Shown piece by piece: positions 1,281-28,908 of a stretch of DNA of 64,000 nucleotides (position 1 is the stretch's first letter; the number at the start of each line of letters is the position of its first letter). The notes beneath the pieces are model-generated. The model saw only the letters and a list, made by a program, of their open reading frames with translations, was not told the DNA's origin and searched no databases. Position numbers and translations under genes: made by a program. The stretch lies in the NCBI GenBank assembly GCA_900318265.1, contig ONKA01000017.1:43151-107150 (forward strand), given 5' to 3'. Source of the stretch: an uncultured Bacteroidales bacterium. Its GTDB lineage: Bacteria > Bacteroidota > Bacteroidia > Bacteroidales > F082.

Positions 1281-1309
1281 GGTTGATAAATCGCTTTTGG
1301 CGCTCTATA
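1281..1309 (+). promoter_or_regulatory. special promoter copy 1 (GGTTGATAA-N15-CTATA)
   Basis: GGTTGATAA at 1281-1289 and CTATA at 1305-1309 are separated by exactly 15 bases. It is one of six copies in the window, all with the same spacing, and this is the only one with T at position 7. Read as -35/-10 it is TTGATA-N17-TATAAG. It drives the AAA+ ATPase gene at 1390. Confidence 0.75.
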
Positions 1310-1315
1310 AGCAGA

Positions 1316-1349
1316 TAGACACGGGGCGCAAGTTTAGCGTCCCTGTCTA
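1316..1349 (+). other. 5' leader hairpin of the AAA+ ATPase mRNA
   Basis: TAGACA (1316-1321) pairs with TGTCTA (1344-1349), and GGGGCGC pairs with GCGTCCC inside it, leaving an AAGTTTA loop. It begins about where a transcript from the promoter at 1281-1309 would start, so the mRNA would carry a stable 5' stem. No T-tract follows, so it is not a terminator. Confidence 0.5.
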
Positions 1350-1389
1350 CACAATAAACAATATAAAGAACCTTTAAAACATCCGCCTT

Positions 1390-3144
1390 ATGAAAAGAAA
1401 GCAAGTCCCCACTTCGTTGGACGAAGACGTGTTCAACCCCATCCCCTACTACGCACAGGCCACACCGGTCAATAAGACGAAACTGAAAAGTATGAGTCTG
1501 CTCGACAAGCTCGAGCAACTCATACAACTGGCACGAGGCTGCCGTTTTGAAGACAAGTTCTTCAAGCTCCACAAATCACTGATTGAGTCGACGGCTGCCG
1601 ACCTTGAACTGACACCAGAAGAGACAGTAATGCTCTGCCCCTTCATTTCTGACTCTGAGAGTACCGTGAACACGCGAGAAATGACGGACTACTTCACTTG
1701 TTCTCCCATAACCATAATGCGTAAGACGGAAAACCTGAAGACACTGACGCACCGCCGCTACATCAGAAAACGCGGGTGCTTTCATGGCAGCGGACCTGCC
1801 TATCAGCTAAGTGAGAAGGCCAAGGCGGCCTTTTGCAACAACCAATCCTTACCTGTTGTCAACACAGCCAATCTGACAGCAGAAGAGTTTATGAAACGCT
1901 TTACTGCCTTGGTGCGTGAAGCAGGTCGTAACGGTCAAATTGACGAAGACGAGCTACTCTACGAGACCATAGAGTTGCTCAACAACAATCCTCAACTGGT
2001 TATCGCACGCAGTATTAACGGATTGAGAATAAATCAATTTGATAAGCTATACCTACTCTATTTTTGCAAACGACTCGTCGTGGACCAACAGATAAGGGTT
2101 CCCCTCGGTCAGCTGGAGTTCCTCTCCACTGACGATATTGATGACGAGTTCCCCATACTGATGAACAACGGAAATCACCCTTTCATCAAGGAAGGAATTC
2201 TAACGCTTACAGGACAAGATGACTTCTTATCAAATAACATCTTCCAACTCACAGACAAGGCCCGCAAGCTCTTCCTCAGCGAATATGACATTATAGCCAA
2301 TGACGAGGAGGAGGATGACGAACACATCAACATTCTCCACTGCAACGATATCAATCCCAAGTCGCTGTTCTACTGCGCAGAAGACCAGGGTCAAATTGAC
2401 ACCTTGCAGCACCTGCTCGAAGACGAGCAGCTGCAAGCCATACGCGAACGCTTGGAGAAGGCCAACCTCCGCAAAGGATTCAACTGCCTCTTCTATGGCG
2501 GTCCGGGCACGGGCAAGACAGAGACAGCCTTGCAACTGGCCCGTATGACGGGTCGCGACATTATGCAGGTCGACATTTCGTCGATACGAGATAAATGGTA
2601 CGGTGAGACGGAGAAGATAGTGAAAAGCATCTTCGAGAGCTATGCCGAGCGTGTGAAGAAATCGAAACACATCCCCATCCTGCTTATCAACGAAGCCGAT
2701 GCGGTCCTCTCGGTGCGAACGAGCGTGGGTGGCAACAACCCCACCCTCGAGAAGACGGAGAACGCGATTCAGAACATCCTTCTCCAAGCTATGGAAGACA
2801 TCGATGGCATTATGATTGCCACCACCAACCTGACCTGCAATCTTGACAGTGCCTTCGATAGACGTTTCCTCTATAAGGTGGAGTTCCACCAGCCCAGTGT
2901 TGAAGCCAAGACCCACATCTGGCAGAGCTTCATCCCGGGCCTTGCCGATGCCGATGCCAACGTGTTGGCCCGCTCCTACAACTTCAGCGGTGGCCAGATT
3001 GAGAACATCGCACGCAAGGTGATGGTTGACCACCTGCTCTTTGGTGGCACCCCTGACCTCAACCACATTGAGGAGCTCTGCTCGAAGGAGCAGATTGCCA
3101 GGAGCAACACGAATAGCCGTAAGCCGATAGGTTTCCGTAGTTAG
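1390..3144 (+). CDS. AAA+ ATPase with N-terminal winged-helix-like region
   Basis: 584 residues. The C-terminal half is a classic AAA+ module: Walker A GGPGTGKT (about 369-376), Walker B LLINEAD (about 434-440, Asn where most families have Asp before Glu), sensor ATTNL, arginine finger in DRRFLY, and a small C-terminal helical domain. The N-terminal 300 residues contain a segment resembling a winged helix (TREMTDYFTCSPITIMRKTE, about 97-116, then a KKG-type wing) and a second such segment before residue 300. The E in Walker B is kept, so hydrolysis is likely. It is transcribed from special promoter copy 1 with a structured leader, and the clan-CD-like gene follows 22 bases after its stop, so the two probably work together. 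Substrate unknown. Confidence 0.8.
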   Translation: MKRKQVPTSLDEDVFNPIPYYAQATPVNKTKLKSMSLLDKLEQLIQLARGCRFEDKFFKLHKSLIESTAADLELTPEETVMLCPFISDSESTVNTREMTDYFTCSPITIMRKTENLKTLTHRRYIRKRGCFHGSGPAYQLSEKAKAAFCNNQSLPVVNTANLTAEEFMKRFTALVREAGRNGQIDEDELLYETIELLNNNPQLVIARSINGLRINQFDKLYLLYFCKRLVVDQQIRVPLGQLEFLSTDDIDDEFPILMNNGNHPFIKEGILTLTGQDDFLSNNIFQLTDKARKLFLSEYDIIANDEEEDDEHINILHCNDINPKSLFYCAEDQGQIDTLQHLLEDEQLQAIRERLEKANLRKGFNCLFYGGPGTGKTETALQLARMTGRDIMQVDISSIRDKWYGETEKIVKSIFESYAERVKKSKHIPILLINEADAVLSVRTSVGGNNPTLEKTENAIQNILLQAMEDIDGIMIATTNLTCNLDSAFDRRFLYKVEFHQPSVEAKTHIWQSFIPGLADADANVLARSYNFSGGQIENIARKVMVDHLLFGGTPDLNHIEELCSKEQIARSNTNSRKPIGFRS

Positions 3145-3166
3145 TAACAATAAACATATAAAGATT

Positions 3167-3697
3167 ATGATAGTGATTCACGTTGACACGATGGAAGACA
3201 CCGCTAGGTTGAAGAAAACCTACGAGGGTCTTGAGAACGTAACCTTATTGTACAACCCCACCAAGGAGGAAGTCATCGCGCAACTAAAGCGCGACGACGA
3301 CCCTTTGGTGATGTGCCTCGGGCACGGGTCCAGTAGCGGTCTGTTCAACAGAGACTGGTTTGGCTATGTTGTTGATCACAGCATGGTCGATCTCTTGAGA
3401 GGCAGGCAGGTGATAGGCATCTGGTGCTTTGCCAGCAGCTTCGCTGAGCGCTATGGCTTGCAAGGCTATTTCACCTCCATGTTTGTCTCCAACATCAATG
3501 AGGCCGAAGGTTTCGGTTTCCCTGACAACACCAATGAGGACATCCTCAACGAGGTCAATCTTTTCTGTGAGACCATCAACACCTACCTGAAAGGAGGCCT
3601 CCCGATGGACGAATGGGTGCCGCGCCTGCAAGCCGGTTGCCACAAGGAAAAGGACTTCGTGAAGTATAACTATGAGGGAATGAGGTATTTTGCATGA
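3167..3697 (+). CDS. caspase/CHAT-like (clan CD) putative peptidase
   Basis: 176 residues, no signal peptide. Two hydrophobic strands each end in a candidate catalytic residue: DPLVMCLGHGSSSGL gives H53-G54, and RQVIGIWCFASSFAERYG gives C87 at a strand end. This strand-HG / strand-C order is the signature of clan CD proteases (caspases, gingipains, CHAT). The family assignment rests on this pattern only; the rest is not recognised. It is 22 bases downstream of the AAA+ ATPase gene and almost certainly co-transcribed with it. A regulated ATPase plus a caspase-like protease is a plausible stress or defence effector pair, which is inference. An inactive Rossmann-like protein is the main alternative. 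Confidence 0.55.
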   Translation: MIVIHVDTMEDTARLKKTYEGLENVTLLYNPTKEEVIAQLKRDDDPLVMCLGHGSSSGLFNRDWFGYVVDHSMVDLLRGRQVIGIWCFASSFAERYGLQGYFTSMFVSNINEAEGFGFPDNTNEDILNEVNLFCETINTYLKGGLPMDEWVPRLQAGCHKEKDFVKYNYEGMRYFA

Positions 3698-3726: not shown

Positions 3727-3755
3727 GGTTGAAAAACCATTATGTTTGTTCTATA
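3727..3755 (+). promoter_or_regulatory. special promoter copy 2
   Basis: GGTTGAAAA 3727-3735, 15 bases, CTATA 3751-3755, followed by AT. Read as -35/-10 it is TTGAAA-N17-TATAAT, a near-perfect E. coli-type promoter. The ATG at 3792 is 36 bases downstream. Confidence 0.8.
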
Positions 3756-3791: not shown

Positions 3792-4295
3792 ATGATTTAT
3801 CTTGAAGACCCCAACATGAACCCTGCCGAGCTCTTTGAACCGGATAACGAGCTCCCTCCCAAGTTCTCTTTATGGCTGCACGATGATAAAGCCCAATGCG
3901 AGAAAGTCGCCAAAGAGTATGCCAACTCCATGAGAAGACCCAAGTATTACCCACTGTATGAGATGACCTGTGCCAAAGTCGATGTAGAAGAGCGCAAACT
4001 TTTCGATCACCAGAAGGTGGAGGTGGAACTCAACGACGAGGAGTATGTCTACCTGCTTACCCGGGCTCTGCTCTATGGCACTACCTACCGCTTCAGCCAC
4101 CTGCGTCACGAAAACCCTGCCCTGGCACAAAAAGTCTTCACTCAAGCCATGGCTGGCTATCCCGACGACCTGAAGAGCGACGGCGCCCTCTATCAGATTG
4201 CCTTCAGCGAAATGCACGACAACGCCAAGGAAATCTTACAACTGAAGAACTATTTCTTCCCCGGTGATTTGAATAATTCCAGGATCTTCATATAA
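3792..4295 (+). CDS. unknown cytoplasmic protein
   Basis: 167 residues starting MIYLEDPNMNPAELFEPDNE. I chose the ATG at 3792 because the longer frame begins with a TTG inside the promoter copy at 3727. The protein is hydrophilic with no signal peptide or membrane segment. The middle (VEVELNDEEYVYLLTRALLY) and C-terminal half are predicted helical by composition. No family recognised. It has its own special promoter, so it belongs to the same regulon as the AAA+/clan-CD pair. The gene ends 64 bases before sbcD, which has an ordinary promoter. Confidence 0.7.
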   Translation: MIYLEDPNMNPAELFEPDNELPPKFSLWLHDDKAQCEKVAKEYANSMRRPKYYPLYEMTCAKVDVEERKLFDHQKVEVELNDEEYVYLLTRALLYGTTYRFSHLRHENPALAQKVFTQAMAGYPDDLKSDGALYQIAFSEMHDNAKEILQLKNYFFPGDLNNSRIFI

Positions 4296-4359: not shown

Positions 4360-5529
4360 ATGAAAATATTACACACCAGCGACTGGCACTTAGGACATGT
4401 GCTATACGGCCATGACCGAACCGACGAACAACAAAAGATGCTTGACCAGATGGTCGAGATTGTAGAGGAACAAAAGCCTGACGTGTTTCTGCTATGTGGC
4501 GACGTTTTCCATACGTCACAACCATCGAATGCCATACAGACCACACTGTCAGAAGCACTCGTGAAAATACACAAGGCTAATCCTGAGATGGTCATCGTGA
4601 TGACCGCCGGCAACCACGACAGCGGCACGAAACACGAGATATTCAGAACACCTTGGCGAGCACTGAAAGTATATGCCATCGGACAACTGGAGAAGGAGAA
4701 AGTGGATGAGCATATCATCAAAGTGCCCGGAAAAGGCTTCATCATCGCCATCCCTTATATCAACGAGCGAAATCTCCCAGAAGGATTCTTCCAACAATTG
4801 CTCGACAAAGTGGCCGCCATGAATACAGAAGGATTGCCGGTGGTGATGACCGCCCATACCACGGTGAAAGGTTGCGATTTCTTGGGTCACGACCAAGGCA
4901 CAGAATATGTCGTGGGGGGCATCGACTCGATAGACTTGGAACAACTGGGCGAAGGCTATGACTATCTGGCCTTGGGCCACATTCATCACGGACAATTTAT
5001 CCGTAGCGGGAAACATAACGTAAGATACTCTGGCACCCCGCTGCCCATCAGCTTCGACGAGAACTTTAGCCATTCCGTAAGTATGGTTGAAATCGATAAG
5101 CATGGCGATACTCCAACCGTGACAGAGATTGAAATCAACAATCCTCATCCCTTGGTGACCTTGCCTTCCGAAGGGCTGGCATCATGGGAAACGGCCAAGG
5201 AGCTGTTGAAAAAGTTTCCTGACGACATCCCGGCGTATATCCGTTTGAACGTGGAGATTGACGACTTCCTACCCGTTGAAGCCCAAGCCGAAGCGGTAAG
5301 TCTAGTCGAAGGAAAACAATGCCATGTTTGTCACATCAATGCCAAAAGAAAAACCATCGACCAGACTGAGGCCAAGGTACTGACCGTACAGGAATTTCAG
5401 GCGGAAAAACCCATTGAAATCGCCAAACAGTATGCCAATTACGAAGGCATCAGCTTCGACGAAGAGATGACCGACATGTTTAACGAGATCGTGAATTTGG
5501 TGAACGACGATGCAAGAAACGAAAAATAA
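4360..5529 (+). CDS. sbcD: SbcD/Mre11-type nuclease subunit
   Basis: 389 residues, normal for SbcD. SbcCD is an ATP-dependent nuclease that opens hairpins and processes DNA ends. The metallophosphoesterase motifs appear in order: DWHLG (D8, H10), GDVFH (D48), GNHDS (N85, H86), AHTTV, and GHIHHGQ (about 206-212). It is the first gene of a two-gene operon with sbcC (15-base gap, AGGAGG at 5530-5535 before the sbcC start). Role in the cell: cleavage of palindrome-derived hairpins, which is notable in a genome so rich in palindromic repeats. Confidence 0.95.
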   Translation: MKILHTSDWHLGHVLYGHDRTDEQQKMLDQMVEIVEEQKPDVFLLCGDVFHTSQPSNAIQTTLSEALVKIHKANPEMVIVMTAGNHDSGTKHEIFRTPWRALKVYAIGQLEKEKVDEHIIKVPGKGFIIAIPYINERNLPEGFFQQLLDKVAAMNTEGLPVVMTAHTTVKGCDFLGHDQGTEYVVGGIDSIDLEQLGEGYDYLALGHIHHGQFIRSGKHNVRYSGTPLPISFDENFSHSVSMVEIDKHGDTPTVTEIEINNPHPLVTLPSEGLASWETAKELLKKFPDDIPAYIRLNVEIDDFLPVEAQAEAVSLVEGKQCHVCHINAKRKTIDQTEAKVLTVQEFQAEKPIEIAKQYANYEGISFDEEMTDMFNEIVNLVNDDARNEK

Positions 5530-5544: not shown

Positions 5545-8433
5545 ATGAAACTACAAAAGCTGACCATACATAACATTGCATCGATTGAAGATGCCACAAT
5601 TGATTTTGAAGCACAGCCGTTGGCCAACAGCGAAGTGTTCCTGATTACGGGTAAGACAGGCTCGGGCAAATCGACGATCTTGGACGCCATCTGCTTGGCA
5701 CTATTTGCCGACACCCCAAGATTGGACGGGACAAAGATGCAAGGCGATACAAAAGATGGTACTACTGACATCACAACCAAAGACCCGCGTCAGCTGATGC
5801 GAAGGAATACCGGAGAGGCTTTTGTGTCACTCACCTTCATGGGCAGTAATGGCATACACTACGAAGCCAAGTGGGGTGTTGCGCGTGCTTACAACAGACC
5901 AACAGGAAACCTTCAACCCAAGTCCTGGGAACTGACCAACCTCGATACAAATTATACTTATACCAGAGACAGAGATATCAGCGCTGAGATTCAAGCGGCC
6001 ATCGGCCTCGATTTCAGCCAGTTCTGCCGTACGACATTGTTGGCTCAAGGCGAGTTCACTCGTTTCCTGAACAGCAAGGACGACGAAAAAGCAGAAATTC
6101 TGGAGAAAATCACTGGTGTTGACATCTATTCGAAGATAGGCAAGAAGGTTTTTGAGGTGACTGGTAAAAAGCAAAAAGAATGGGAAACAGCCCAGCAAAA
6201 GATTGAGGGCATGAGCACCATGGACGAAGAAGCCATCGCTGCCAAAAAGGAGGAGATCGCCGGATACGACGCTCAATTGACCCAAGTCAAGAAAGCAGGC
6301 GAGGAGGACAAGGCCAAACTGCAATGGATCAAGACGGATGCCGACTTGGAAAAGGCTGTCGCCACTGCCACTCAAGAGCACCAACAGGCTCAATCCGTAG
6401 TGGAAGGCGACGACTTCAAGCACAAGGAAACATTGGTCCAACAATGGAATGCCACGATTGAAGCCCGCAACTGGCTGGCCGCAATGAGGGGTGCCGAGGA
6501 ATCTATTTCCAAAGGAAAAAAGAAGATCGAGGAATGCGAAAGCACCATGGCCAGCGAGAATAAGAACCTCACGGAAACCCTGCAACCCGCTTTGGAAAAG
6601 GCGCAGAAGGCCGAAAATGGCGCACAAACGGCCTTGGAGCAACAGGCAGCAACACTGAAGACCCAGGAAGCGACACTTGCCGAACTGCATCTGCCCGAAC
6701 TGAGGAAAAAACGCGACGAAGCCAAGGACCTGAAGCGAAACATTGTCACGACCTACGAGCGAATCGAGACCTATAAAAAGGAAAAGGACCGCAGAGAAAG
6801 CAAAACCAAGTTGCTCAAAGATACACTTGCCGACATCGAACAAAAACAGAAAGAGGCAGCAACCATGGATCCGCTCATCCATGACGCCAAGGTGAAGATG
6901 GACGACCGCAAGGCATTGCTCGACAAGCAAAGCGACACCATCGACAAGTTTGCCCAGACCCTGCGCCAGAAACTGCATGTGGGCGACATCTGCCCCGTCT
7001 GCCGACAGGAAATCAAAAGCGAGCTGCCGCATGAGGAAGAATTGGCACAACTCGTTGGAGAACTGAGAGCGGTTTACACCGAGGCCGAGTCGGCGCACCA
7101 AGAACTAGTGAACAAGAAAAACAAGCTGGAGGCTGAGATAAAGGCTGCCAAAACGTCGTACGACAAGGAAAAAGAGGCCTTCGACAAAGACAACACCCTC
7201 ATGATGGCCACCCAAAGAGTCATCGAGGCCTGCAAGATTTGCGGTTTTGAGACCATCGGCCAAGACACCACCGAGAAGCTGGCCACCTTAAAGGCCAACA
7301 CCGAGACACGCCTGCAGGAACTTGAAAACAAGATTGCCGAAGGCGAGAAAAAGGAAAACCTCATCAAGGCCCAAAGAGACGCCCTCGACAAGTCAAACAA
7401 AAACTTGGAGCAACTGAAGAAGGCTTCACAAAAAGCCGAACAAGCCATCAGCGACTGCAAAGGTAGAATTGCCATCGCCGAAGAAGTCAAGAAAAACACG
7501 GAACAGGTGCAGCTGAAACAAGCAACGGACACCTTTAATGCCAACGACCAGCAGTTGAAGACCTTCCTTGGCACTCATCCAGACCTTGACATAGAACGAC
7601 TGACCGCCTTGAATGCCCATTCTTCACAAAACATCAACGAGATTCAAGCCTCGCTTGAAGCCGGCAAAAACAGCGTGCTGAGCAAGAAAACCCTGAAAGA
7701 CGAGGCTGGACGAAAACTGGAAGAGCACAGACTAGTGAAGCCTGAGCTGAAGGAGGAAGACACGGCCGAATTGCTGGAGGTCCGTATCAAGGACAATGAA
7801 AAAACGATGTCTGAAATCTCGGAGAAGAAGGGCGCCATCAACCAGGAGCTGAAGGCCGATGAAGAGAACAAGAAACAGCTTGGCCACCTAAAGGAAGAAG
7901 CCGACAAGAAGCAAGCCGATTATCAGCGATGGTCGCGCATGAACCAACTCATTGGCGATGCAACGGGTAACAAGTTCCGTAAGATTGCCCAGAGTTATGT
8001 GTTGAACAGCCTCATCCATTCGGCCAACCACTACATGAGGACGCTGACCGACCGTTACACGCTGAAAGTAGTGCCAGGCACGTTCGTCATTTCGCTCGAA
8101 GATGCCTATCAGGGCTATGTAAGCCGGGCGGCAAGCACCATCTCTGGCGGAGAGAGTTTCCTCGTTTCCTTGTCGTTGGCTCTTGCGCTCAGTGATATTG
8201 GACAACAATTGGCGGTGGACACCCTTTTCATCGACGAGGGCTTTGGTACCCTCAGCGGTGAACCCTTGCAGAATGCCATCAACACGCTGCGTTCGCTCCA
8301 CACCAAGTCGGGTCGCCATGTGGGTATTATCAGCCACGTGGAAGAGCTGCAAGGAAAGATCCCCGTACAGATTCAGGTGATACAAGAAGGAAACCTCTCA
8401 AGCAGCGAAGTGAAAGTGGTAACCATTGATTGA
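5545..8433 (+). CDS. sbcC: SbcC/Rad50-type ATPase subunit
   Basis: 962 residues. Walker A GKTGSGKST at 36-44, a long Lys/Glu-rich coiled coil interrupted by a zinc hook CPVC (483-486), a second coil, the ABC signature SGGES (about 867-871) and Walker B LFIDEG (about 893-898). This is the full Rad50/SbcC layout. It pairs with SbcD: the ATPase heads hold the nuclease and the zinc hook joins two complexes. The length is at the shorter end for SbcC (often 1000-1050), because of the coil. No frame problem seen. Confidence 0.95.
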   Translation: MKLQKLTIHNIASIEDATIDFEAQPLANSEVFLITGKTGSGKSTILDAICLALFADTPRLDGTKMQGDTKDGTTDITTKDPRQLMRRNTGEAFVSLTFMGSNGIHYEAKWGVARAYNRPTGNLQPKSWELTNLDTNYTYTRDRDISAEIQAAIGLDFSQFCRTTLLAQGEFTRFLNSKDDEKAEILEKITGVDIYSKIGKKVFEVTGKKQKEWETAQQKIEGMSTMDEEAIAAKKEEIAGYDAQLTQVKKAGEEDKAKLQWIKTDADLEKAVATATQEHQQAQSVVEGDDFKHKETLVQQWNATIEARNWLAAMRGAEESISKGKKKIEECESTMASENKNLTETLQPALEKAQKAENGAQTALEQQAATLKTQEATLAELHLPELRKKRDEAKDLKRNIVTTYERIETYKKEKDRRESKTKLLKDTLADIEQKQKEAATMDPLIHDAKVKMDDRKALLDKQSDTIDKFAQTLRQKLHVGDICPVCRQEIKSELPHEEELAQLVGELRAVYTEAESAHQELVNKKNKLEAEIKAAKTSYDKEKEAFDKDNTLMMATQRVIEACKICGFETIGQDTTEKLATLKANTETRLQELENKIAEGEKKENLIKAQRDALDKSNKNLEQLKKASQKAEQAISDCKGRIAIAEEVKKNTEQVQLKQATDTFNANDQQLKTFLGTHPDLDIERLTALNAHSSQNINEIQASLEAGKNSVLSKKTLKDEAGRKLEEHRLVKPELKEEDTAELLEVRIKDNEKTMSEISEKKGAINQELKADEENKKQLGHLKEEADKKQADYQRWSRMNQLIGDATGNKFRKIAQSYVLNSLIHSANHYMRTLTDRYTLKVVPGTFVISLEDAYQGYVSRAASTISGGESFLVSLSLALALSDIGQQLAVDTLFIDEGFGTLSGEPLQNAINTLRSLHTKSGRHVGIISHVEELQGKIPVQIQVIQEGNLSSSEVKVVTID

Positions 8434-8458: not shown

Positions 8459-8487
8459 GGTTGAAAAACCCATCGAATCGTTCTATA
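8459..8487 (+). promoter_or_regulatory. special promoter copy 3
   Basis: GGTTGAAAA 8459-8467, 15 bases, CTATA 8483-8487 (TTGAAA-N17-TATAGT). The 67-base leader to 8555 contains a small hairpin (GGGTG 8513-8517, CACCC 8522-8526) and an 18-codon ORF at 8494-8550 (MWQGATGVSS...), which could be a leader peptide. Confidence 0.8.
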
Positions 8488-8554: not shown

Positions 8555-8968
8555 ATGGAGATCCAACTGCTCAACCAAACGGAATTCGCCGAAATGCTCA
8601 AGTCGGCCGGCAACGAAACCCACCAAACCACCTTCGTAAACGACGTGTGGTACGAACAAGTCACCATTGGGGAGGTGACCTATCGTCACAAGCTGCTTTC
8701 GCTCAGAAAGTTGAGCTCGGAGTTGCTCGCCAAGAAAGCCTTCGAGGCCAAACCCTGCGTCGAACCCATCCGTCTGCGCGCCCAAGGCAACGGCCCCGTC
8801 GTGGCCCTTGTCTTCAACACCAAGTCGACAGTATTCTACCACCTCTTGGTCGGCACTAAGAGAGAAATGGCCCAGGCCAAAAGCCTCGTGAACTTCTTCG
8901 CCAAGAGCCTCCTCCCAAAGACCACCAAACAGCCACAGGAAGCCGAAGAGGCTTCCTGCGCGGCCTGA
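8555..8968 (+). CDS. unknown small protein
   Basis: 137 residues starting MEIQLLNQTEFAEMLKSAGN. It is soluble, with no signal peptide. The sequence alternates charged helices (LRKLSSELLAKKAFEAKP) and a hydrophobic strand pair (GPVVALVFNTKSTVFYHLL). It ends in a Lys/Gln-rich tail and CAA. No family recognised. It is driven by special promoter copy 3 and followed after 33 bases by a small membrane protein gene, which may be co-transcribed. Confidence 0.65.
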   Translation: MEIQLLNQTEFAEMLKSAGNETHQTTFVNDVWYEQVTIGEVTYRHKLLSLRKLSSELLAKKAFEAKPCVEPIRLRAQGNGPVVALVFNTKSTVFYHLLVGTKREMAQAKSLVNFFAKSLLPKTTKQPQEAEEASCAA

Positions 8969-10451: not shown

Positions 10452-10480
10452 GGTTGAAAACGGGCTATTATTGTTCTATA
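10452..10480 (+). promoter_or_regulatory. special promoter copy 4
   Basis: GGTTGAAAA 10452-10460, 15 bases, CTATA 10476-10480 (TTGAAA-N17-TATATT). The next annotated gene is the sigma factor at 10722, 241 bases away, so this copy either autoregulates the sigma/RpoN-like locus or makes a short RNA ending near 10550. Confidence 0.75.
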
Positions 10481-11408: not shown

Positions 11409-12317
11409 ATGAAAAAAGAAATCTTCACCTTGTCGATTGCCGACACCAATGAAAACAATGCTTCGCTGAAACTTGATAGCACTTTTGGCGACAAATCTGT
11501 AACCTTTACCGTTCGTGACAAAGACGGAAAATCTTGTGCCACAACGCTGGCTCCTCTCGACCTTCATAAGGTCGTAGATTTCCTAAATGGGCGACTGAAT
11601 GCTGTGGAAGAAAGCCCGTCAAACTATGGTCCTTCGTACACCCCCACGGGCCTTGGACTCTGTGTTTTTGACTACCAAGGCAAGTTGCTCGACACTTATT
11701 ATAACCACAAAAGCCTTGCGCAAGGCATCGAAGGCTACAGCTATGAGCAGTTGGCTGAGGCTTTTGGTGAAGACAAGGCCATTTATGTGCTGTTCACCCT
11801 TTACGATGGCAGTGTTGGTCGTGAGACGCTAGTTAGGGTAATGCAAGCCTGCGTTCAGCTGCAAGGTCGCTTCATTGTTACTGGTGAACCCACCTACTGT
11901 AGTCCAATGACACTTGACGACGTGGCCCAAAAAGCGGGTCTTGACTTCACTACTGTATCGCGTTGTGCACGTGAAAATTCCAAAGAAAAGAAAGAGAATT
12001 CTGAAATAGCAGTAGGTGTCCGAATTTATGGTCCTCGCAAGACTTTCACCCTCGACAACAAGGTGAGCACGCTCGACCATCCATCGCTCTTCGACGAAGG
12101 CATCACCCGCGATGGCTTCCCCGTGTCGCGTCTCGAGGTTTTGGAACGCATTCAGTCTATGATTAACAAAGAGAACAAGCACAAGCCTTTAGGTGACCAG
12201 GATATTACTGACGAGCTTAAAGCCTTGGGCTATGATATTGAGCGCAGGACGGTGGCGAAGTATCGTGGAGAACTGTTGGGGTTGCCTAATTCCAACCAAA
12301 GGAGACAAAACAATTAA
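11409..12317 (+). CDS. truncated RpoN (sigma54)-like DNA-binding protein
   Basis: 302 residues against about 480 for RpoN. The second half matches the RpoN C-terminus: a segment like the last core-binding helix (ETLVRVMQACVQLQGRFIV), the HTH MTLDDVAQKAGLDFTTVSRC from about residue 167, and the RpoN box RRTVAKYRGEL (about 279-289), followed by a SNQRR motif like the canonical SSSQRR. The first 130 residues do not resemble RpoN: the Gln-rich region I that contacts bacterial enhancer-binding proteins is absent, as is most of the core-binding domain. It should therefore bind -24/-12 DNA but may not form an activatable holoenzyme. Three sites of that type precede this gene and both small sigma genes. 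It could be a repressor, a decoy, or an activator-independent sigma. Confidence 0.8.
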   Translation: MKKEIFTLSIADTNENNASLKLDSTFGDKSVTFTVRDKDGKSCATTLAPLDLHKVVDFLNGRLNAVEESPSNYGPSYTPTGLGLCVFDYQGKLLDTYYNHKSLAQGIEGYSYEQLAEAFGEDKAIYVLFTLYDGSVGRETLVRVMQACVQLQGRFIVTGEPTYCSPMTLDDVAQKAGLDFTTVSRCARENSKEKKENSEIAVGVRIYGPRKTFTLDNKVSTLDHPSLFDEGITRDGFPVSRLEVLERIQSMINKENKHKPLGDQDITDELKALGYDIERRTVAKYRGELLGLPNSNQRRQNN

Positions 12318-15906: not shown

Positions 15907-15917
15907 ACCCTACAAAC

Positions 15918-20192: not shown

Positions 20193-20193
20193 A

Positions 20194-21191: not shown

Positions 21192-21242
21192 TTTTCAGTA
21201 GTTTAAATCAAAAAATTACGTGGATTGTTGTTGATTATTTAA

Positions 21243-21250
21243 TACTTTTG
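21243..21250 (+). promoter_or_regulatory. vegetative -7 element
   Basis: TACTTTTG, 23 bases before the ATG at 21274, with TTGTTG about 18-23 bases further upstream. A standard Bacteroidetes promoter for the 21274/21993 genes. Confidence 0.6.
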
Positions 21251-21273
21251 CAGCAGAACTTTCATTTTATACT

Positions 21274-21945: not shown

Positions 21946-21992
21946 GGCAAAATATAACCTAATGAATATTTAAAATCAAATTGCAGTATATT

Positions 21993-24644
21993 ATGGACTT
22001 AAGTAAAATAACAACCGTGGCACAATGTGATGCCGAAATTAAACAACGCAAAGCGGATTTGCTATCGGGTATTATCCCAGCCTATCTCAGAGCTACAGTA
22101 CAAGATGAAATCGACGACCTTGAGGCTCACAAAAATAAACTCTCAGGTCCGATATCCATTTACGATACCCTAAAAAGGAAAATTGGATATAGTCAGGCAC
22201 TCCAGGACTGTATTGATGATACATATAAGAACTTGACAGACCCCAATGCTGAGGACACCTCTATCCCGGGTTTGCTTTTGGGCAGAATACAATCGGGCAA
22301 GACAAGAGCTTTTGTAGGAGTCATGGCAAAAGCTTTTGATAATGGTTTTGATGCCTGCATCGTCCTTACAAAGCCTGATGATGGACTGGTAATGCAAACT
22401 AAGGCAAGACTGGAAAACGATTTCTCAGATTTTCTTGACACCAATTGTTTGTATAGCCAAAATATAGTTGTTGTTTATGATGTAAAGAAGAAGCTAAGCC
22501 TCTCTCCACTTCAATGTAGTTACAAAAGCATTTTTGTTTTACACAAAAACAAAAGGCTCGAGGCAATGAAAAAAACCTTGGATGCTTATTTTGAAAACAA
22601 GAAGGTTTTGATAATCGATGATGAAGCAGACTTCGTGAGTCGCACGTTTTATTGCAAACAAAAACAGGTTACAGGCGGTGTGACAGGTTTTAGAATTGAT
22701 GATTTGTCTAATAATCCCAAAATTGACTGCTATTATCTGCAAGTGACAGCAACACCTTACTCCTTATTACTTCAACCAGACGAAACAATCGTGGTGAACA
22801 ATGGCATTCTTTCTTGTTTTCATCCACGGTTTACTGTCCTTGTTCCAACACATGACCAATATGTTGGCGGCGAGCAATATTATGTGAAGTCATTGAATTC
22901 ACAATCAATGTATTCCTATCTAATGCACTCGATGAGTGATAACTGCCTTGACAGATTGCTTAAGAAAAACGAACACGCTCGTATTACAAAAGCGGCAGCC
23001 ACACATCCCGTTTTTCAAGATCTAAGAGATGCATTGATGAGTTATTTTGTTGGATCAGCCATCAGACGAATTCAAGAAAAAAAGAACAAACAAAACTATA
23101 AAACAAGTTTTTTGATACATTGCGCTACTGAAAAAGGTGATCATACCTATGAAAAGACAATAGTAGACATTATTCTTAACGAATGGCAAAAAGATGTACT
23201 ACAACAACAAGGATCGGGGTTGTTGCAACTATTTACCATTGCATACTATGACATGGTGGCATCTAATCAGGCTGGTAATACGTGTATGGACTCAAAAACA
23301 AATAAAACAGAGTTGTCTAACTTAAACATGCCTACATCTCCTGATGTTTGGAATGAGTTTTTGAATATTTTTAGCAAACAGTCCTATTCTGTATTATGCA
23401 TAAACGGAGACACCACAGATGATCCAAATCTATATGAAAAAGATGGCCAACTAAAGTTGCCATCGTATCTGAATATCTTTATTGGAGGATTTAAAGCTGA
23501 TAGAGGCATTACGATAAATAACATGATTGCCTTCCTCTATGGACGACGTCCACAAAATGGTGGCTCTGCAAATACCATATTACAACACATGAGACAATAT
23601 GGCAATCGGTCGGCTGAAGACATGTCTGTCACAAGATTCCACACCACCAACAGTCTATATCAAAAGTTAAAAGAGATATATGAAACCGATGAGAGTTTGA
23701 GAGTGTTTTTTGAAAAAAACGCAACACCAAGTGTGACATATATAGAATATGATCCAAGGCTTGCTACATATAAGTTATGCAGCCCACAACAAATAAGAAT
23801 GTCTTCGATTCGAGCCTATGGTTCGCTGGCTCGTTTAATTGCGACCCCCGGCTTCCAAACAAAAGACCATAAAACCATATCGCCAATAATTTCGACTATC
23901 GATAATGAATTGTTTAAGTCCCAGGAGAAAACACCTTTTTTGATGGATAAAGCCGATGCATACAGACTCCTTTCTCAAATCAAGTCAACATTCTTATATA
24001 GCAAGGCTTTAAATAACAAACAATATGAATGGGACGAGAAAACCATGATTCAAGCTATTGAAAGACACATCCATCCTGATGGAAGAATTTGGGCTTATTA
24101 TGCAAAAAACAAAGACAATGCACGATTAAAAGGCAAAGGCACTTTTAATGATGCCCCAGAAGATGGTAAAACAGATACACCCATCGCCGAAAAAACTGCC
24201 GTAGATAGACCTTTCCTTATGTTTTTTAGAGAGAATGGTGATATCTCAAAAGGTTGGAACGGAACTCCTTTCTATTGGCCTGTTCTTAGATTACCTCAAA
24301 ACACCCAACCCAACGTTTTTTGCGACGGGGTAATTAATGAGCCGAGAAAAAACGCGCAATTGGTAGTAAAACAATCCAACGGGACTCCGATTGTCGGATC
24401 AGGAGTGGTTGACACCTTGATAGAATGTATTAAAATTGCCGGTCCTGCAAAGGTTGAAAACTTAAACATAAACTATCGTAAAAACAACTTGGTTTATGCT
24501 GCTGGTAGATGTCCAAAGAATTACTCTACTATAGTACCCGGAAAGTACTATATTAGGAAAGGCATTACTGCTTCTACTGCAGAGAGTTTTTTAAACGAAA
24601 TATCTTCCAAGCTAAAGCTTAATTGGATCATTTCTATTGTATAG
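21993..24644 (+). CDS. Z1-domain P-loop ATPase
   Basis: 883 residues from the ATG at 21993; a TTG at 21981 is a less likely start. Walker A GRIQSGKT (about 97-104), Walker B LIIDDEAD (about 206-213), a helicase motif III-like QVTATPY (about 250-256) and the Z1 signature IFIGGFKADRGITINNM near residue 500, followed by a QHMRQYGNR arginine motif. Z1 ATPases are SF2-related proteins found in restriction-like gene sets, often with MORC-type ATPases, methyltransferases or nucleases; no MORC gene is visible here. It presumably works with the 21274 product, and perhaps with the helicase/methyltransferase pair. Confidence 0.85.
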   Translation: MDLSKITTVAQCDAEIKQRKADLLSGIIPAYLRATVQDEIDDLEAHKNKLSGPISIYDTLKRKIGYSQALQDCIDDTYKNLTDPNAEDTSIPGLLLGRIQSGKTRAFVGVMAKAFDNGFDACIVLTKPDDGLVMQTKARLENDFSDFLDTNCLYSQNIVVVYDVKKKLSLSPLQCSYKSIFVLHKNKRLEAMKKTLDAYFENKKVLIIDDEADFVSRTFYCKQKQVTGGVTGFRIDDLSNNPKIDCYYLQVTATPYSLLLQPDETIVVNNGILSCFHPRFTVLVPTHDQYVGGEQYYVKSLNSQSMYSYLMHSMSDNCLDRLLKKNEHARITKAAATHPVFQDLRDALMSYFVGSAIRRIQEKKNKQNYKTSFLIHCATEKGDHTYEKTIVDIILNEWQKDVLQQQGSGLLQLFTIAYYDMVASNQAGNTCMDSKTNKTELSNLNMPTSPDVWNEFLNIFSKQSYSVLCINGDTTDDPNLYEKDGQLKLPSYLNIFIGGFKADRGITINNMIAFLYGRRPQNGGSANTILQHMRQYGNRSAEDMSVTRFHTTNSLYQKLKEIYETDESLRVFFEKNATPSVTYIEYDPRLATYKLCSPQQIRMSSIRAYGSLARLIATPGFQTKDHKTISPIISTIDNELFKSQEKTPFLMDKADAYRLLSQIKSTFLYSKALNNKQYEWDEKTMIQAIERHIHPDGRIWAYYAKNKDNARLKGKGTFNDAPEDGKTDTPIAEKTAVDRPFLMFFRENGDISKGWNGTPFYWPVLRLPQNTQPNVFCDGVINEPRKNAQLVVKQSNGTPIVGSGVVDTLIECIKIAGPAKVENLNINYRKNNLVYAAGRCPKNYSTIVPGKYYIRKGITASTAESFLNEISSKLKLNWIISIV

Positions 24645-24782
24645 TCTAAAAAATTCATCAAGTCAGATTGTACAAATAGAACGAAAAAAGCAAGGATAAT
24701 TAGAAAAACAGGTGGTTCTGTAAAAAGAGAAAAACATTGTTACGAACATGATCAAAGAGGACCTTTAAAAATAAATAAAAAA

Positions 24783-26516
24783 ATGTCACACATTGATTAT
24801 AAAGTAGGCGAATCCTACACTTTTACACCGCAAGAAATCGGTAAAGACTCGCGTGGCAATGAATACTTGGTTCTGCTTGATAAGCAAGGAGAACACGAGT
24901 ATCGAGTGTATCCGCAATTGGTGAAATTTCAGGAAGACAATCTTCCGCAGGAGGTAACAGCATCTGTGAGAAGCATTGACATCCTAGGAAGATTACAATT
25001 TCGTCTGGATGAAGGCGCGATGATTCGTGAGCACTACACTGAAGGCAAATATTATCTTTTCCATATTACCGACACCCGCGACGATCCCAATACCGGCGCT
25101 CACTATTATTTGATTGAAGACGATTTCTCAATGCATCGGTTCTACCGCGACGATTGCGAGGATTATAAGAAAGGCAATGACTGCATTTTGATGGTAAAGG
25201 GATTCAATGAAAAAGGATTCATTAAGTTTGAAGAACCCCAATCCAAAAAAGAGACTGCGCCAATCACAGAACAACCTAACCAAACACAGCCAGAACAACC
25301 AAATCCTAATAATTGGGACAACGCTCCCATTCTGGATATAGGTGATGAGGATACCCATCTGGAGTTCAAGACAAGTATTGTGTTTGTTCCCGGCCAAAAA
25401 AACGTTGCAGATATTGACTCTCAACTCGATAACATCCTTAAAGAATTGTGCGCATTCATGAATACTGACGGCGGTGAACTCTACATCGGAATCCATGATA
25501 AGACGAAACGTATTGTAGGTATCAGCAAGGATTATCCGCATTTAAACGATGGAGACGACCGTTATGCGGGTGATTATGAACAATCTCATGATGGCTATAA
25601 ACTAAAGATTCGAAATACCATCGACCGAAAGTGTACCAGTTTAGCTAATTCATTGATTGACTTCGAGTTTAAAGTGGTCGATGGGGCTGAATATTGCAAG
25701 ATAACGGTCAAGAAAGCCCAACGCCCCGTTTGGCTTAATGGTACCCAGTTGTGGATCAGGCAAGGATGCCGCCTCAAGCAATTGAAAGGTGACGACATCA
25801 GCTTCTTTATCACCGACACCATGAATGTAACCATCCAAAATCAACTGGAGACCGAAGGGGTCAACGCCTCAACTGTATCGCTGACGAAAGAGGAATTGGA
25901 AGAGATGTTGCACAAAATTGTCAATGTACGTAAGCAGATTGACATTCCGTTGCCTCCTCCACCGTCCCTCGACGAAGTGAAAGAGTGGGTAAACTGGCTT
26001 GACGATGGCTCATGGAAGCGCACACGTGAAAAGGCAACCGACAAACAGTATTGCATCCAAGTGCCAGTACCCGAAAAAATCACCGACCCTATGATTTTGT
26101 TTTGCTATGAATCTGGTGCTGTCAACTGTATGAGATATGCGGATTTCAGACGCGGAACGAATATGAAAGTGCTAGAGGTGAGGAAGACATGGAATATGGA
26201 TGCTGGACGACCCATCAACATACTCATTGCACCACCATCAAGTCTGCTGGTGGGTTATAGCGTCGATTATAATGGGTTACAGTATGTGAAATTCCATGAT
26301 ATAACAGATTTCACTCCTACCGCTGCCGCAAAAAACAAAGGCGTGCCTTTTGTTCCATCAGGTTTTCGGATGTTGTGTTTCAAAGTCGTTGATGGCTCTT
26401 ACAGAAAAAAACTGGCACCTCTCCAGCGAACCAAACAACAACGTTCGCAAGATGCTGGTGAGCCACTCGACAGCCCCATCTTCGTCAACGAAATAGCACT
26501 ATTGAATAGTCTATAG
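24783..26516 (+). CDS. AlbA_2 / Schlafen-AAA-like protein with OB-like N-terminus
   Basis: 577 residues. Residues 1-160 are beta-rich with repeated strands (YTFTPQEIGKDSRGNEYLVL), perhaps two OB-like domains. A Gln/Pro linker follows, then an AlbA_2/Schlafen core: HLEFKTSIVF with E194 and K196, and MNTDGGELYIGIHDK around 226-240. Schlafen-type domains include tRNA-cleaving RNases and transcriptional regulators; the acidic residues fit that family but do not prove nuclease activity. The C-terminal 200 residues are not recognised. The gene sits at the end of the defence island without a clear promoter: the 138 bases upstream (24645-24782) hold nothing I can identify. Confidence 0.75.
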   Translation: MSHIDYKVGESYTFTPQEIGKDSRGNEYLVLLDKQGEHEYRVYPQLVKFQEDNLPQEVTASVRSIDILGRLQFRLDEGAMIREHYTEGKYYLFHITDTRDDPNTGAHYYLIEDDFSMHRFYRDDCEDYKKGNDCILMVKGFNEKGFIKFEEPQSKKETAPITEQPNQTQPEQPNPNNWDNAPILDIGDEDTHLEFKTSIVFVPGQKNVADIDSQLDNILKELCAFMNTDGGELYIGIHDKTKRIVGISKDYPHLNDGDDRYAGDYEQSHDGYKLKIRNTIDRKCTSLANSLIDFEFKVVDGAEYCKITVKKAQRPVWLNGTQLWIRQGCRLKQLKGDDISFFITDTMNVTIQNQLETEGVNASTVSLTKEELEEMLHKIVNVRKQIDIPLPPPPSLDEVKEWVNWLDDGSWKRTREKATDKQYCIQVPVPEKITDPMILFCYESGAVNCMRYADFRRGTNMKVLEVRKTWNMDAGRPINILIAPPSSLLVGYSVDYNGLQYVKFHDITDFTPTAAAKNKGVPFVPSGFRMLCFKVVDGSYRKKLAPLQRTKQQRSQDAGEPLDSPIFVNEIALLNSL

Positions 26517-26762: not shown

Positions 26763-26791
26763 GGTTGAAAAATTCCATCCCCGCCGCTATA
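26763..26791 (+). promoter_or_regulatory. special promoter copy 5
   Basis: GGTTGAAAA 26763-26771, 15 bases, CTATA 26787-26791 (TTGAAA-N17-TATATA). The ATG at 26828 is 36 bases downstream, the same distance as for copy 2. Confidence 0.8.
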
Positions 26792-26827: not shown

Positions 26828-27457
26828 ATGGAACACAACAACGAATCCAAGAACAACTTTTCAGAAGTCTTCACCGGAGAAAACGGCAAAAAGGGCGTGA
26901 AGCTTAGCAACGGTAAGGTGGTAGTCCCTGCGCTTTACGACGAGATTGCCTATACTTACGACAGTTTTGAGGCCGATACCCGTCCCTATGTGGCTATCAA
27001 AGACGGCAACTACGGATTGGTGCTCCCCGACGGCAAGGGGACCGAGCTTACACCGTTTGTCTATGAGGGAATCTTCGCCGTGCCTGAGATTCTCAACCAT
27101 TTCCTTTACAAGAAGGAAAAAGGCAAACGCTTTGGCATCATGGCAATGGACGGCCGCGAAGTCACCCCCTGCAACCTCGATTCCTACAGCTGCGACGGCC
27201 AAACGGTCTATTTCCGCAGCGGCAATCACCAAGGGCTCTGGCAGTGGATTATCGACGAACTGCTGGAACCCATCTACGACGACATCGAAGTTCTCAACAT
27301 TGACGAGGCCACACTGTTCACCCTTAACGGTGAGAAAGGCTATGTGAAGGTCGAAGACCACAGCTTCATCCCGGCGAGTCTGGAAAACACTATGGACGAA
27401 GATGCTTGGCACGACTTGCTGCTTGAGTGCTTCTGCGACCAGTATCTTGATAATTGA
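26828..27457 (+). CDS. WG-repeat-like protein
   Basis: 209 residues, cytoplasmic. Repeating strands of the type NGKVVVPALYDEI, KDGNYGLVLPDGK, and KGKRFGIMAMDGREVTP, then GLWQWIIDELLEPIYDDIE, match the WG beta-repeat (KVNGKWGYIDKxG-like) with degenerate W-G pairs. Such proteins are protein- or nucleotide-binding scaffolds rather than enzymes. First gene of a three-gene operon (20-base gap to the 2H phosphoesterase gene) under special promoter copy 5. Confidence 0.7.
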   Translation: MEHNNESKNNFSEVFTGENGKKGVKLSNGKVVVPALYDEIAYTYDSFEADTRPYVAIKDGNYGLVLPDGKGTELTPFVYEGIFAVPEILNHFLYKKEKGKRFGIMAMDGREVTPCNLDSYSCDGQTVYFRSGNHQGLWQWIIDELLEPIYDDIEVLNIDEATLFTLNGEKGYVKVEDHSFIPASLENTMDEDAWHDLLLECFCDQYLDN

Positions 27458-27477
27458 TTTTTAAGCTCTGATAATTC

Positions 27478-28017
27478 ATGAGCAACTATCTAGAACTCAA
27501 AATACCCATCCGTCAATCGGCCAAGTGGTTCGTAAATCTGCGAAAGGCAATGGCGGAAGCAAAGATCCCGGTGAGATGGCAGCCGGGTGGTTTCCATCTC
27601 ACCGTGGCCTTCATCAGCAACGACCAACCCGTGAAGGCGCTATCTGTAGCATTCGACAGACAACTGTCTGGTCGCCAGGCTCCAGTTCAAACTTTTGACA
27701 AGGTGGACGCTTTCGAAGCAAAAACAGGCGATGAATTCATCCTTCACCTCACTTCGACCCAGTTGTCGCCAACATTGCAAACACTGGTGGACTTGCTGAG
27801 GAAAGAGGCTGTCGATGCGGGTGCTGATATCGAAAACGACTTCATCCTTCACGTCACGCTGGGTAGAATCGATGCAAACAAAGCAACATTGGAACAGGTG
27901 AGGCGGATTGCCGAAAGCATTCAAGTGCCGCCCTTCACACTGCTATTACAAAATGCTGAATACCGTTACTTCAGAGGCAAAAGCATCCAACGCTGGACAA
28001 TGAACCAAAACAATTAA
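27478..28017 (+). CDS. 2H phosphoesterase (LigT / 2'-5' RNA ligase-like)
   Basis: 179 residues. The two catalytic H-x-T motifs are present at the expected spacing: GGFHLTVAF (H40, T42) and ILHVTLGRI (H125, T127). Family members open 2',3'-cyclic phosphates at RNA ends, or ADP-ribose 1'',2''-cyclic phosphate made during tRNA 2'-phosphate removal. The next gene starts 4 bases after its stop and encodes a PARG/macrodomain-related protein, which would fit the second reaction chain. Substrate is inference. Confidence 0.82.
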   Translation: MSNYLELKIPIRQSAKWFVNLRKAMAEAKIPVRWQPGGFHLTVAFISNDQPVKALSVAFDRQLSGRQAPVQTFDKVDAFEAKTGDEFILHLTSTQLSPTLQTLVDLLRKEAVDAGADIENDFILHVTLGRIDANKATLEQVRRIAESIQVPPFTLLLQNAEYRYFRGKSIQRWTMNQNN

Positions 28018-28021
28018 TATC

Positions 28022-28819
28022 ATGACAGACTACAGAACCATCAACCGTCAAGTAATGACCGACACCAAAAGACAGTATGAGTCGGTAGAAGAACTGAAAG
28101 AAGCCGTTAAGAACTCCATCCGTCATCAATATATGGTGACCCAAGAGGAAAACATCGACCAGCCCATCGTGGAGAACAGTCAGACCCTTCATGTCTGCTC
28201 TGGCAAACGCAGCTTTGAGGCGGCCAAAGCCTATAAGGGCAAAAAGACCGCCGTGCTGAACTTTGCGAACAACCACGCCATAGGCGGAGCACCTTTCTCT
28301 GCCGGTGCCCAGGAGGAGTCACTTTGCAGATGCTCCACCCTGCTGCCTTGCCTGGAGGCCATGCGTGAATCTTTCTACAACAAACATATCCGCCAGTATT
28401 TGGCTGGGCAAATCGGTCTCTTGGGTAACGACGACCTGATTTATACGCCCGATGTGGTGGTGTTCAAATCGGACGAGCGCACCGACCCCATCTATCCCAA
28501 AATGATGGAGAAGAACGAATGGTATAAAGTGGACGTGATTACTTGTGCCGCTCCGGAGCTGATGAAGATGCACCACCGCCCCGCCAACTATGAGGAAATC
28601 ATCACCTCCCGCATCAAGAAAATCCTGGATGTCGCTGCCAAAGAGCAGGTCGAGGTATTGATTCTCGGCAAATGGGGTTGTGGCGCATTCAAGAATCCTT
28701 CGGATGTTGTCGCCAAGGTGTTCCGAACCTTGCTGAAAAACTACAATTTCGAAACGGTGGAGTTCGCCCTGGCGTCACAAGGGGATGTCAGCGATTCTCC
28801 TTTTGCATGGATGGGATAA
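28022..28819 (+). CDS. bacterial PARG-like protein (TIGR02452 family)
   Basis: 265 residues. The diagnostic stretch NNHAIGGAPFSAGAQEESLC (83-102) carries the Gly-rich ADP-ribose loop and the QEE motif whose glutamates (E98/E99) are catalytic in poly(ADP-ribose) glycohydrolases. C-terminal ILGKWGCGAFKNPSDVVAKV is the second macrodomain signature. It probably removes ADP-ribose from proteins or nucleic acids. It is the last gene of the WG / 2H / PARG operon, 4 bases after the 2H gene. The start MTDYRTINRQ is the first ATG of the frame. Confidence 0.85.
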   Translation: MTDYRTINRQVMTDTKRQYESVEELKEAVKNSIRHQYMVTQEENIDQPIVENSQTLHVCSGKRSFEAAKAYKGKKTAVLNFANNHAIGGAPFSAGAQEESLCRCSTLLPCLEAMRESFYNKHIRQYLAGQIGLLGNDDLIYTPDVVVFKSDERTDPIYPKMMEKNEWYKVDVITCAAPELMKMHHRPANYEEIITSRIKKILDVAAKEQVEVLILGKWGCGAFKNPSDVVAKVFRTLLKNYNFETVEFALASQGDVSDSPFAWMG

Positions 28820-28879
28820 AGCGCTAAATGCACTGGCCCTGCGTTCAAAAACCCAACTACGCTTTTTATTATCAATTCA

Positions 28880-28908
28880 GGTTGAAAACTCCATGAGTTA
28901 GCGCTATA
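28880..28908 (+). promoter_or_regulatory. special promoter copy 6
   Basis: GGTTGAAAA 28880-28888, 15 bases, CTATA 28904-28908 (TTGAAA-N17-TATAAA). The leader to the ATG at 29018 is about 110 bases with no clear hairpin. Confidence 0.8.

What the first reader, a model, noticed from the sequence alone, without database searches (positions are those of the whole stretch)
1281..28908. Six copies of an E. coli-like promoter (TTGAAA-N17-TATA) with fixed flanks in a Bacteroidetes genome
GGTTGA(A/T)AA-N15-CTATA occurs at 1281, 3727, 8459, 10452, 26763 and 28880, all on the plus strand, all between genes, with exactly 15 bases each time. Bacteroidetes vegetative sigma factors use TTTG (-33) and TAnnTTTG (-7), and none of the six copies has that. 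Read as -35/-10 they are TTGAAA (or TTGATA)-N17-TATAxx. The conserved GG before and C before TATA suggest one dedicated reader. The downstream genes (AAA+ ATPase, clan-CD-like, unknowns, sigma/RpoN locus, WG/2H/PARG operon, coiled-coil protein) would form one regulon, spread on both sides of the defence island.
Basis: partly seen in the sequence, partly recalled or inferred. Interest (0 to 1): 0.9.

Follow-up and report, generated by a model that had tools for sequence, protein, structure and literature searches.

The report
Sigma factor regulon for ADP-ribose repair
A gut bacterium carries repeated promoters of a type unusual for its phylum, and among its relatives they occur almost only where one particular sigma factor gene is also present, which suggests that this factor switches on a set of ADP-ribose-removal and DNA-repair genes together.

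Summary
The six copies are real: 6 exact matches in the window, 0 expected; the 2.98-Mb genome has 7. Across the 99 held genomes of the genus the motif follows one gene, the small sigma-70-family factor at window 589-1260. All 15 genomes with this sigma have at least one site (52 sites, degP look-alike excluded); 9 of the 84 others do (10 sites); Fisher p 6e-12, not corrected for relatedness. The second sigma (10722) is a distant paralogue found only in this genome, so it is not the shared reader. Sites keep a 15-base spacing in the regions examined, carry an unselected upstream T-tract, and stand before 14 gene families: AAA+ ATPase, SbcD, RmuC, PARG, 2H phosphoesterase, unknowns; NADAR and ADP-ribosylglycohydrolase genes lie further along. 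Best reading: an alternative-sigma regulon for ADP-ribose removal and DNA repair with an E. coli-like promoter, in a phylum whose main promoter is TTTG/TAnnTTTG. Corrections: copy 3727 does contain TAnnTTTG; four sigma-minus genomes keep regulon-like sites. Nothing is tested experimentally; direct recognition, ADP-ribose role, sigma-54 control and proteolysis are inferences.

The parts
1281..1309 (+). site 1 (GGTTGATAA form), 21 nt after the sigma stop, 80 nt before the ATG of the AAA+ gene
   Evidence: the close AAA+ gene has a site before it in 12 of 13 genomes (10 exact, G029 one mismatch, G010 N14; G078 none)
3727..3755 (+). site 2, before the 167-aa gene that precedes sbcD-sbcC; spacer holds TATGTTTG
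8459..8487 (+). site 3, before the 137-aa gene
10452..10480 (+). site 4, 241 nt before the ATG of the second sigma gene
26763..26791 (+). site 5, before WG - 2H phosphoesterase - PARG genes
28880..28908 (+). site 6, before the 341-aa coiled-coil-like gene
589..1260 (+). sigma-70-family factor, proposed reader (ORF opens at 526; ATG at 589 chosen from the conserved GCCTATG start)
   Evidence: Pfam Sigma70_r2 2.8e-09, Sigma70_r4 0.0012 below its cut-off; TIGR02937 58.6 bits over 42.9
427..442 (+). sigma-54-like box in the sigma leader (uncertain)
471..497 (+). 8-codon upstream ORF in the sigma leader
1390..3144 (+). AAA+ ATPase, 584 aa
   Evidence: Pfam AAA 4.5e-21
3167..3697 (+). 176-aa protein; clan-CD-like is by eye only
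   Evidence: no Pfam or NCBIfam family
3792..4295 (+). 167-aa protein
4360..5529 (+). SbcD
   Evidence: TIGR00619 145.3 bits over 77.65
5545..8433 (+). SbcC
   Evidence: SbcC_Walker_B and AAA_23 over cut-off
8555..8968 (+). 137-aa protein of unknown function, ends in SCAA
10722..11318 (+). second sigma factor, distant paralogue, found only in this genome
10580..10594 (+). sigma-54-like box before the second sigma (uncertain)
11409..12317 (+). short protein with a sigma-54 DNA-binding domain only
   Evidence: Pfam Sigma54_DBD 4.2e-23
26828..27457 (+). WG-repeat protein
   Evidence: Pfam WG_beta_rep 25.9 bits over 25.6
27478..28017 (+). 2H (LigT-type) phosphoesterase
   Evidence: Pfam LigT_PEase 6e-11
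28022..28819 (+). microbial-type PARG
   Evidence: Pfam PARG_cat_microb 9.5e-23; TIGR02452 126.9 bits over 50
29018..30043 (+). 341-aa protein; coiled coil by eye
   Evidence: no Pfam family over its cut-off

Best explanation
The six sequences are promoters for RNA polymerase carrying the sigma factor encoded at 589-1260: region 4 reads GGTTGAAAA (-35), region 2 reads CTATA (-10), with 15 bases between, and the T-tract just upstream acts like an UP element. The sigma switches on a regulon of an AAA+ ATPase, SbcCD, small unknown proteins and ADP-ribose-removing enzymes; in relatives its sites lie on several contigs. Shown by computation: the motif, its spacing in the regions examined, its place before genes, its co-occurrence with this sigma. 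Inferred: direct recognition, transcript starts, function of the regulon.
For: 0 expected by shuffling. 99 genus genomes: 15 of 15 with the sigma have 1-6 non-degP sites (52), 9 of 84 without have 10; Fisher 6e-12. Reversed pattern: 1 in the 15, 4 in the 84. Of 9 genomes seen only in the second round, the one with the sigma has 6 sites (2 degP-type, 1 inside a 2977-aa ORF), the other 8 have 2 in all. In 650 kb of sigma-plus regions, picked because they held sites, CTATA follows GGTTGAWAA at N15 51 times, N14 once, N16 once. T is 62% at -16..-9 in 32 non-redundant sites against about 30% further up; a T-run of 5 or more in 19 of 32 against 5.2% of 824 windows upstream of ORFs. 45 first genes in 14 families. 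48 of 50 unique contexts outside ORFs of 150 aa or more. Sigma domains.
Against: Sites without a detected sigma: G021 before sbcD, G030 beside sbcCD, G033 before sbcD at 13 of 14 positions, G059 before 137-aa, PARG-like and AAA+ genes; the peptidase-type site is also in sigma-minus G018. G078 has the sigma but one site and none before its AAA+ gene. 7 of 50 sites carry TAnnTTTG at one fixed register, so the housekeeping sigma may read some. Relatedness not modelled. Genomes are incomplete. The sigma's own gene has an exact site upstream in 1 of 14 cases.
Confidence: 0.77

Rival explanations
1. The sites are promoters read by another sigma that usually travels with this one, or by several (the 10722 paralogue in this genome, or the rpoD-like sigma encoded behind degP).
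For: Four sigma-minus genomes keep regulon-like sites; the 10722 sigma matches the family profile at 2.3e-23; other paralogues exist in G031 and G074.
Against: The 10722 sigma was found in 1 of 149 genomes. The rpoD-like sigmas also match in sigma-minus genomes with no exact site such as G051, G039, G011, G034, G020 and G047.
Confidence: 0.12
2. The motif is the operator of a DNA-binding regulator encoded in the same cluster, not a promoter.
For: Bipartite and rigidly spaced; linked to a gene cluster.
Against: Not a palindrome or direct repeat; the sites lie before genes in one orientation (22 of 22 on the sigma's strand near 12 named sigma loci, records that overlap the genus set); T-tract and boxes fit a promoter.
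Confidence: 0.08
3. Ordinary housekeeping promoters or chance.
For: Copy 3727 has TAnnTTTG; sbcD has a TAnnTTTG of its own close by in several genomes (read by eye).
Against: 0 expected; 63 exact sites against 1 reversed in the 15 sigma-plus genomes; 41 of 50 contexts have no TAnnTTTG in 109 nt.
Confidence: 0.03

Closest known systems
Bacteroidetes primary sigma promoter (TTTG at -33, TAnnTTTG at -7; PMC7366714, passages)
   Same: Upstream and downstream box before genes; a few sites carry TAnnTTTG inside
   Different: GGTTGAAAA-N15-CTATA with fixed spacing; 41 of 50 contexts have no TAnnTTTG
Promoter motifs SM4-SM6 of Flavobacterium psychrophilum and PM2 of Bacteroides thetaiotaomicron (PMC9723704, PMC7366714; passages)
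   Same: Alternative-sigma promoter classes within the phylum
   Different: Described there as sigma-54, TAnnTTGY and CGT types; the letters of PM2 were not in the passages I saw, so PM2 is not compared
ECF sigma factors
   Same: Only regions 2 and 4 were matched; TIGR02937 over cut-off
   Different: The boxes lack the CGT -10 that the F. psychrophilum paper takes as an ECF sign; AAA+ partner rather than a known anti-sigma (anti-sigma not searched for)
Orphan ECF sigma AntA, degraded by ClpXP through C-terminal Ala-Ala (PMC7142297, passages)
   Same: Small sigma with a conserved C-terminal dipeptide
   Different: Tail is Cys-Ala (13 of 13 aligned); degradation untested
Bacterial PARG, NADAR and ARH reversal of nucleic-acid ADP-ribosylation; D. 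radiodurans DNA-damage-induced PARG operon (PMC11833690, passages)
   Same: Same enzyme families; PARG beside repair genes
   Different: No sigma-factor control appeared in the passages seen; here the genes share a promoter motif

Membership tests
Sigma-70 family factor (protein 589-1260) | Region 2 | tested here: met
   Pfam Sigma70_r2 37.1 bits over 24
Sigma-70 family factor (protein 589-1260) | Region 4 helix-turn-helix | tested here: met
   Pfam r4 alone is below its cut-off, 18.8 against 24.1; the family profile aligns to region 4 of solved SigA chains and TIGR02937 is over cut-off
Sigma-70 family factor (protein 589-1260) | Sigma fold | tested here: met
   Model of middling confidence (pLDDT 69, pTM 0.42); the 50 rows listed by Foldseek are sigma chains by title, best E 4e-06, TM about 0.3 because the two parts are placed differently
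Sigma-70 family factor (protein 589-1260) | Binds core polymerase and directs initiation | not testable with these tools
   needs in vitro transcription
ECF sigma | CGT-type -10 | tested here: not met
   CTATA at every site by construction of the pattern; near variants keep TAT
ECF sigma | Cognate anti-sigma beside it | not tested
   the neighbour is an AAA+ ATPase
Bacteroidetes primary-sigma promoter | TAnnTTTG at -7 | tested here: not met
   absent within 109 nt in 41 of 50 contexts and in 5 of 6 window copies; present in 3727
Sigma-54 promoter (leader of the sigma gene) | GG at -24 and GC at -12, ten bases between | tested here: inconclusive
   GG-N10-G in most of 13 leaders aligned, C at -12 in 3 of 13, and L064, L066, L067 fit poorly

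The most novel reading that the evidence does not exclude
A cascade in which sigma-54 (perhaps opposed by the DNA-binding-only sigma-54 protein at 11409) turns on the 589-1260 sigma, with a tiny upstream ORF in its leader and a C-terminal Cys-Ala degradation tag as brakes, forms a dedicated response to ADP-ribosylation damage from toxins or phages: it reverses the modification (PARG, NADAR, ARH, 2H phosphoesterase) and mends DNA (SbcCD, RmuC).
Probability: 0.25. Interest if true: 0.85.

Novelty: new variant of a known kind. Interest (0 to 1): 0.6.

Why it matters
It would give a phylum known for non-classical promoters a natural E. coli-like promoter class with a named candidate reader, which bears on how Bacteroidetes polymerase uses -35 elements. 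It would also be a transcriptional programme joining ADP-ribose hydrolases with DNA-break repair, a predicted response to ADP-ribosylating attack.

Tried and rejected
Second sigma (10722) as the shared reader: rejected; among 149 genomes only the own genome holds it, and the two other hits are members of the first sigma's family. As an extra reader in this genome it is not excluded.

degP-type site as a regulon site: set aside. All 25 copies in the genus (11 in sigma-plus, 14 in sigma-minus genomes) were dropped from the main counts. With them the totals are 63 and 24. In one search, 3 of 20 leaders (G011, G039, G051) were not readable because the script took another gene.

Phage origin: 216 candidate stretches in viral contigs, none a relative by tblastn. 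Spread outside the genus: among 393 genomes of the order, 5 of the rows shown being of the genus, only the own genome matched at 1e-20; that search scored at most 7 candidates per genome, so distant members could be missed. MzaA and IetA/IteA defence families: weak matches to general sigma and AAA+ parts only. Autoregulation: an exact site upstream of the sigma in 1 of 14 cases, G058.

Rows dropped: the G071 sigma, split over two contigs, and the G070 second copy with an internal stop were left out of alignment A1, as was G157, found later. Leaders of G010, G078 and G071 were left out of alignment A2. Two of 52 sites had contexts identical to others, giving 50; merging those over 75% alike gave 32. 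One search used the 45 sites with a first gene found and holds no G157 site. Of the 20 one-mismatch hits at N15, 4 are the GGTTGATAA form of the pattern itself, so 16 are true variants.
Full report
What was claimed and what is there. The six copies exist as described and are not explained by base composition (0 expected). With two mismatches allowed the window still has only these six. The genome has 7 exact copies and none of the reversed pattern. At up to 2 mismatches it has 61 against 39 reversed, so weak copies are mostly noise.

I searched the pattern and both sigma proteins in 149 relatives, then the sigma profile and the pattern in all 99 held genomes of the genus. The genus is unnamed in the tool; similar public records are uncultured Bacteroidales or Bacteroidia MAGs, one titled goat abomasum and several bearing RUG numbers, which I recall as rumen genomes. 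The sigma at 589-1260 has family members in 15 of 99 genomes at E 1e-15. Those 15 hold 63 exact sites, 52 without the degP-type, at least one each. The 84 others hold 24, of which 14 are degP-type; the other 10 lie in 9 genomes. Reversed-pattern matches: 1 in the 15, 4 in the 84. In 59 genomes of other families the pattern gave 18 matches and its reverse 12, which is background. Nine genus genomes seen only in the second round are a small held-out set: one has the sigma and six sites (two degP-type, one inside a 2977-aa ORF); the other eight have two sites together. Relatedness between genomes was not modelled, so the p value is only a guide.

Which sigma. The sigma at 10722 was found in the own genome only; its other two hits are members of the first family. 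It matches the family profile at 2.3e-23, so it is a distant paralogue and may be an extra reader here, but it cannot explain the sites of the relatives. The two rpoD-like sigmas also match in genomes with no exact site, such as G051, G039, G011 and G034.

Anatomy of the site. Of 50 unique sigma-plus contexts, 48 lie outside ORFs of 150 aa or more and 45 are followed within 260 nt by an ATG-ORF of at least 100 aa. In 650 kb of sigma-plus regions, picked because they held sites, GGTTGAWAA occurs 84 times; CTATA follows at 15 bases 51 times, at 14 once, at 16 once, at 5 once, at 23 twice and at 30 once. Sixteen true one-mismatch variants occur at 15 bases and none at 14 or 16. A T-tract lies 16 to 9 bases upstream although the search did not ask for it: T is 62% there in 32 non-redundant sites against about 30% further up, and 19 of 32 have a T-run of five or more against 5.2% of 824 windows upstream of ORFs. 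Spacer positions 9 (A, 24 of 32) and 11 (C, 23 of 32) are also biased.

What stands behind the sites. 45 first genes fall in 14 families: AAA+ ATPase, a 137-aa protein, a 167-aa protein ahead of SbcCD, a distant SbcD elsewhere in the genome, coiled-coil-like proteins, a peptidase-like protein, sigma factors, WG, PARG, 2H phosphoesterase, RmuC, a transposase-like protein and two unknowns. Further genes on the same strand include ADP-ribosylglycohydrolase, NADAR and an ADP-ribosyltransferase-like protein, the last below its Pfam cut-off. That they share the transcript is inferred from spacing. Of 13 genomes with the close AAA+ gene (56% identity or more), 12 have a site before it: 10 exact, G029 with one mismatch, G010 with 14 bases; G078 has none. 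In G002 and G064 the order is AAA+ then sigma, with the site before AAA+. In 12 named sigma loci, 11 have at least one site and all 22 sites are on the sigma's strand; these records overlap the genus set.

Results against the reading. Four genomes without a detected sigma keep regulon-like sites: G021 exactly before sbcD; G030 with an exact site beside sbcCD and a 14-base version before sbcD; G033 before sbcD with 13 of 14 positions; G059 before a 137-aa gene, a PARG-like gene (by eye) and an AAA+ gene. In one search, 26 of 30 sbcD loci had a locatable start: among 8 sigma-plus, 5 have an exact site and 1 a 13 of 14 site about 630 nt upstream, and 2 (G157, G071) have none within 1.5 kb; among 18 sigma-minus, 16 have none. 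The peptidase-type site is in three sigma-plus genomes and in sigma-minus G018.

The sigma itself. It has region 2 and a weaker region 4. The AlphaFold model (mean pLDDT 69, pTM 0.42) has two helical parts joined by a low-confidence linker, and the 50 solved structures listed are sigma chains by title. All 13 aligned sequences end in Cys-Ala, and two other sigmas, in G031 and G074, end in Leu-Cys-Ala. An orphan ECF sigma with a C-terminal Ala-Ala is a ClpXP substrate (PMC7142297, passages), so a degradation tag is a reasonable but untested idea. The leader of the sigma gene is conserved among sequences with only 27-43% identity outside the closest pair: a TGGCAC-like box, TTTTTG ten bases on, then AAAGATTATGA and an ORF of 2-8 codons (13 leaders, one of them that of the 10722 sigma). 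It resembles a sigma-54 promoter, but C at -12 is kept in 3 of 13 and three leaders fit poorly, so it is a lead. A protein with a sigma-54 DNA-binding domain in a frame of about 500 aa is present in 25 of 25 genomes searched; short ones occur in 4 of 15 sigma-plus and 0 of 10 sigma-minus genomes.

What is known. PMC7366714 (passages) gives TTTG/TAnnTTTG for the primary sigma and says that classical boxes are absent from this phylum's promoters; it also reports a second motif, PM2, whose letters I did not see. PMC9723704 (passages) describes six motifs: three TAnnTTTG types, a sigma-54 type, TAnnTTGY and a CGT type. Searches for a matching regulon listed none, within an open-access library only. 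PMC11833690 (passages) reports bacterial PARG, NADAR and ARH enzymes that reverse RNA ADP-ribosylation and a DNA-damage-induced PARG operon in D. radiodurans, which makes this mix of genes plausible as a damage response.

Verdict. A real, conserved promoter class with a strong candidate reader: a new variant of the known kind 'alternative-sigma regulon'. The mechanism is inferred; the experiments named would settle it.

Noticed in passing
window 30193-31047: Two tandem, similar secreted-looking proteins of repeated GSSxGKI-type units, both ending in an aromatic-rich tail (AAYFFFF).
   Followed up: no
window 12463-26516: Defence-like insertion between sites 4 and 5: a PLD-plus-SNF2 helicase (HKD+Snf2, DrmD-like matches), a type IIG-like enzyme, a resolvase on the minus strand and a Helicase_II/MzaC-like protein.
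   Followed up: partly
window 427-588 and 10580-10721: The two sigma genes share a leader plan: sigma-54-like box, AAAGATTATGA, a 2-8-codon ORF, then 81-91 nt to the sigma start.
   Followed up: partly
G000 C21:18798 (L270) and 19 other degP leaders (L252-L271): Conserved GCATTAATGA element in the leader of degP followed by an rpoD-like gene, possibly a regulatory element of its own.
   Followed up: partly
window 11409-12317; G029, G074, G078: Short proteins with only the sigma-54 DNA-binding domain, in 4 of 15 sigma-plus and 0 of 10 sigma-minus genomes searched; they could compete at sigma-54 promoters.
   Followed up: partly
L086, L109: Paralogous AAA+ ATPase followed by a PLD-family protein, with an exact site 33 nt before it.
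   Followed up: no
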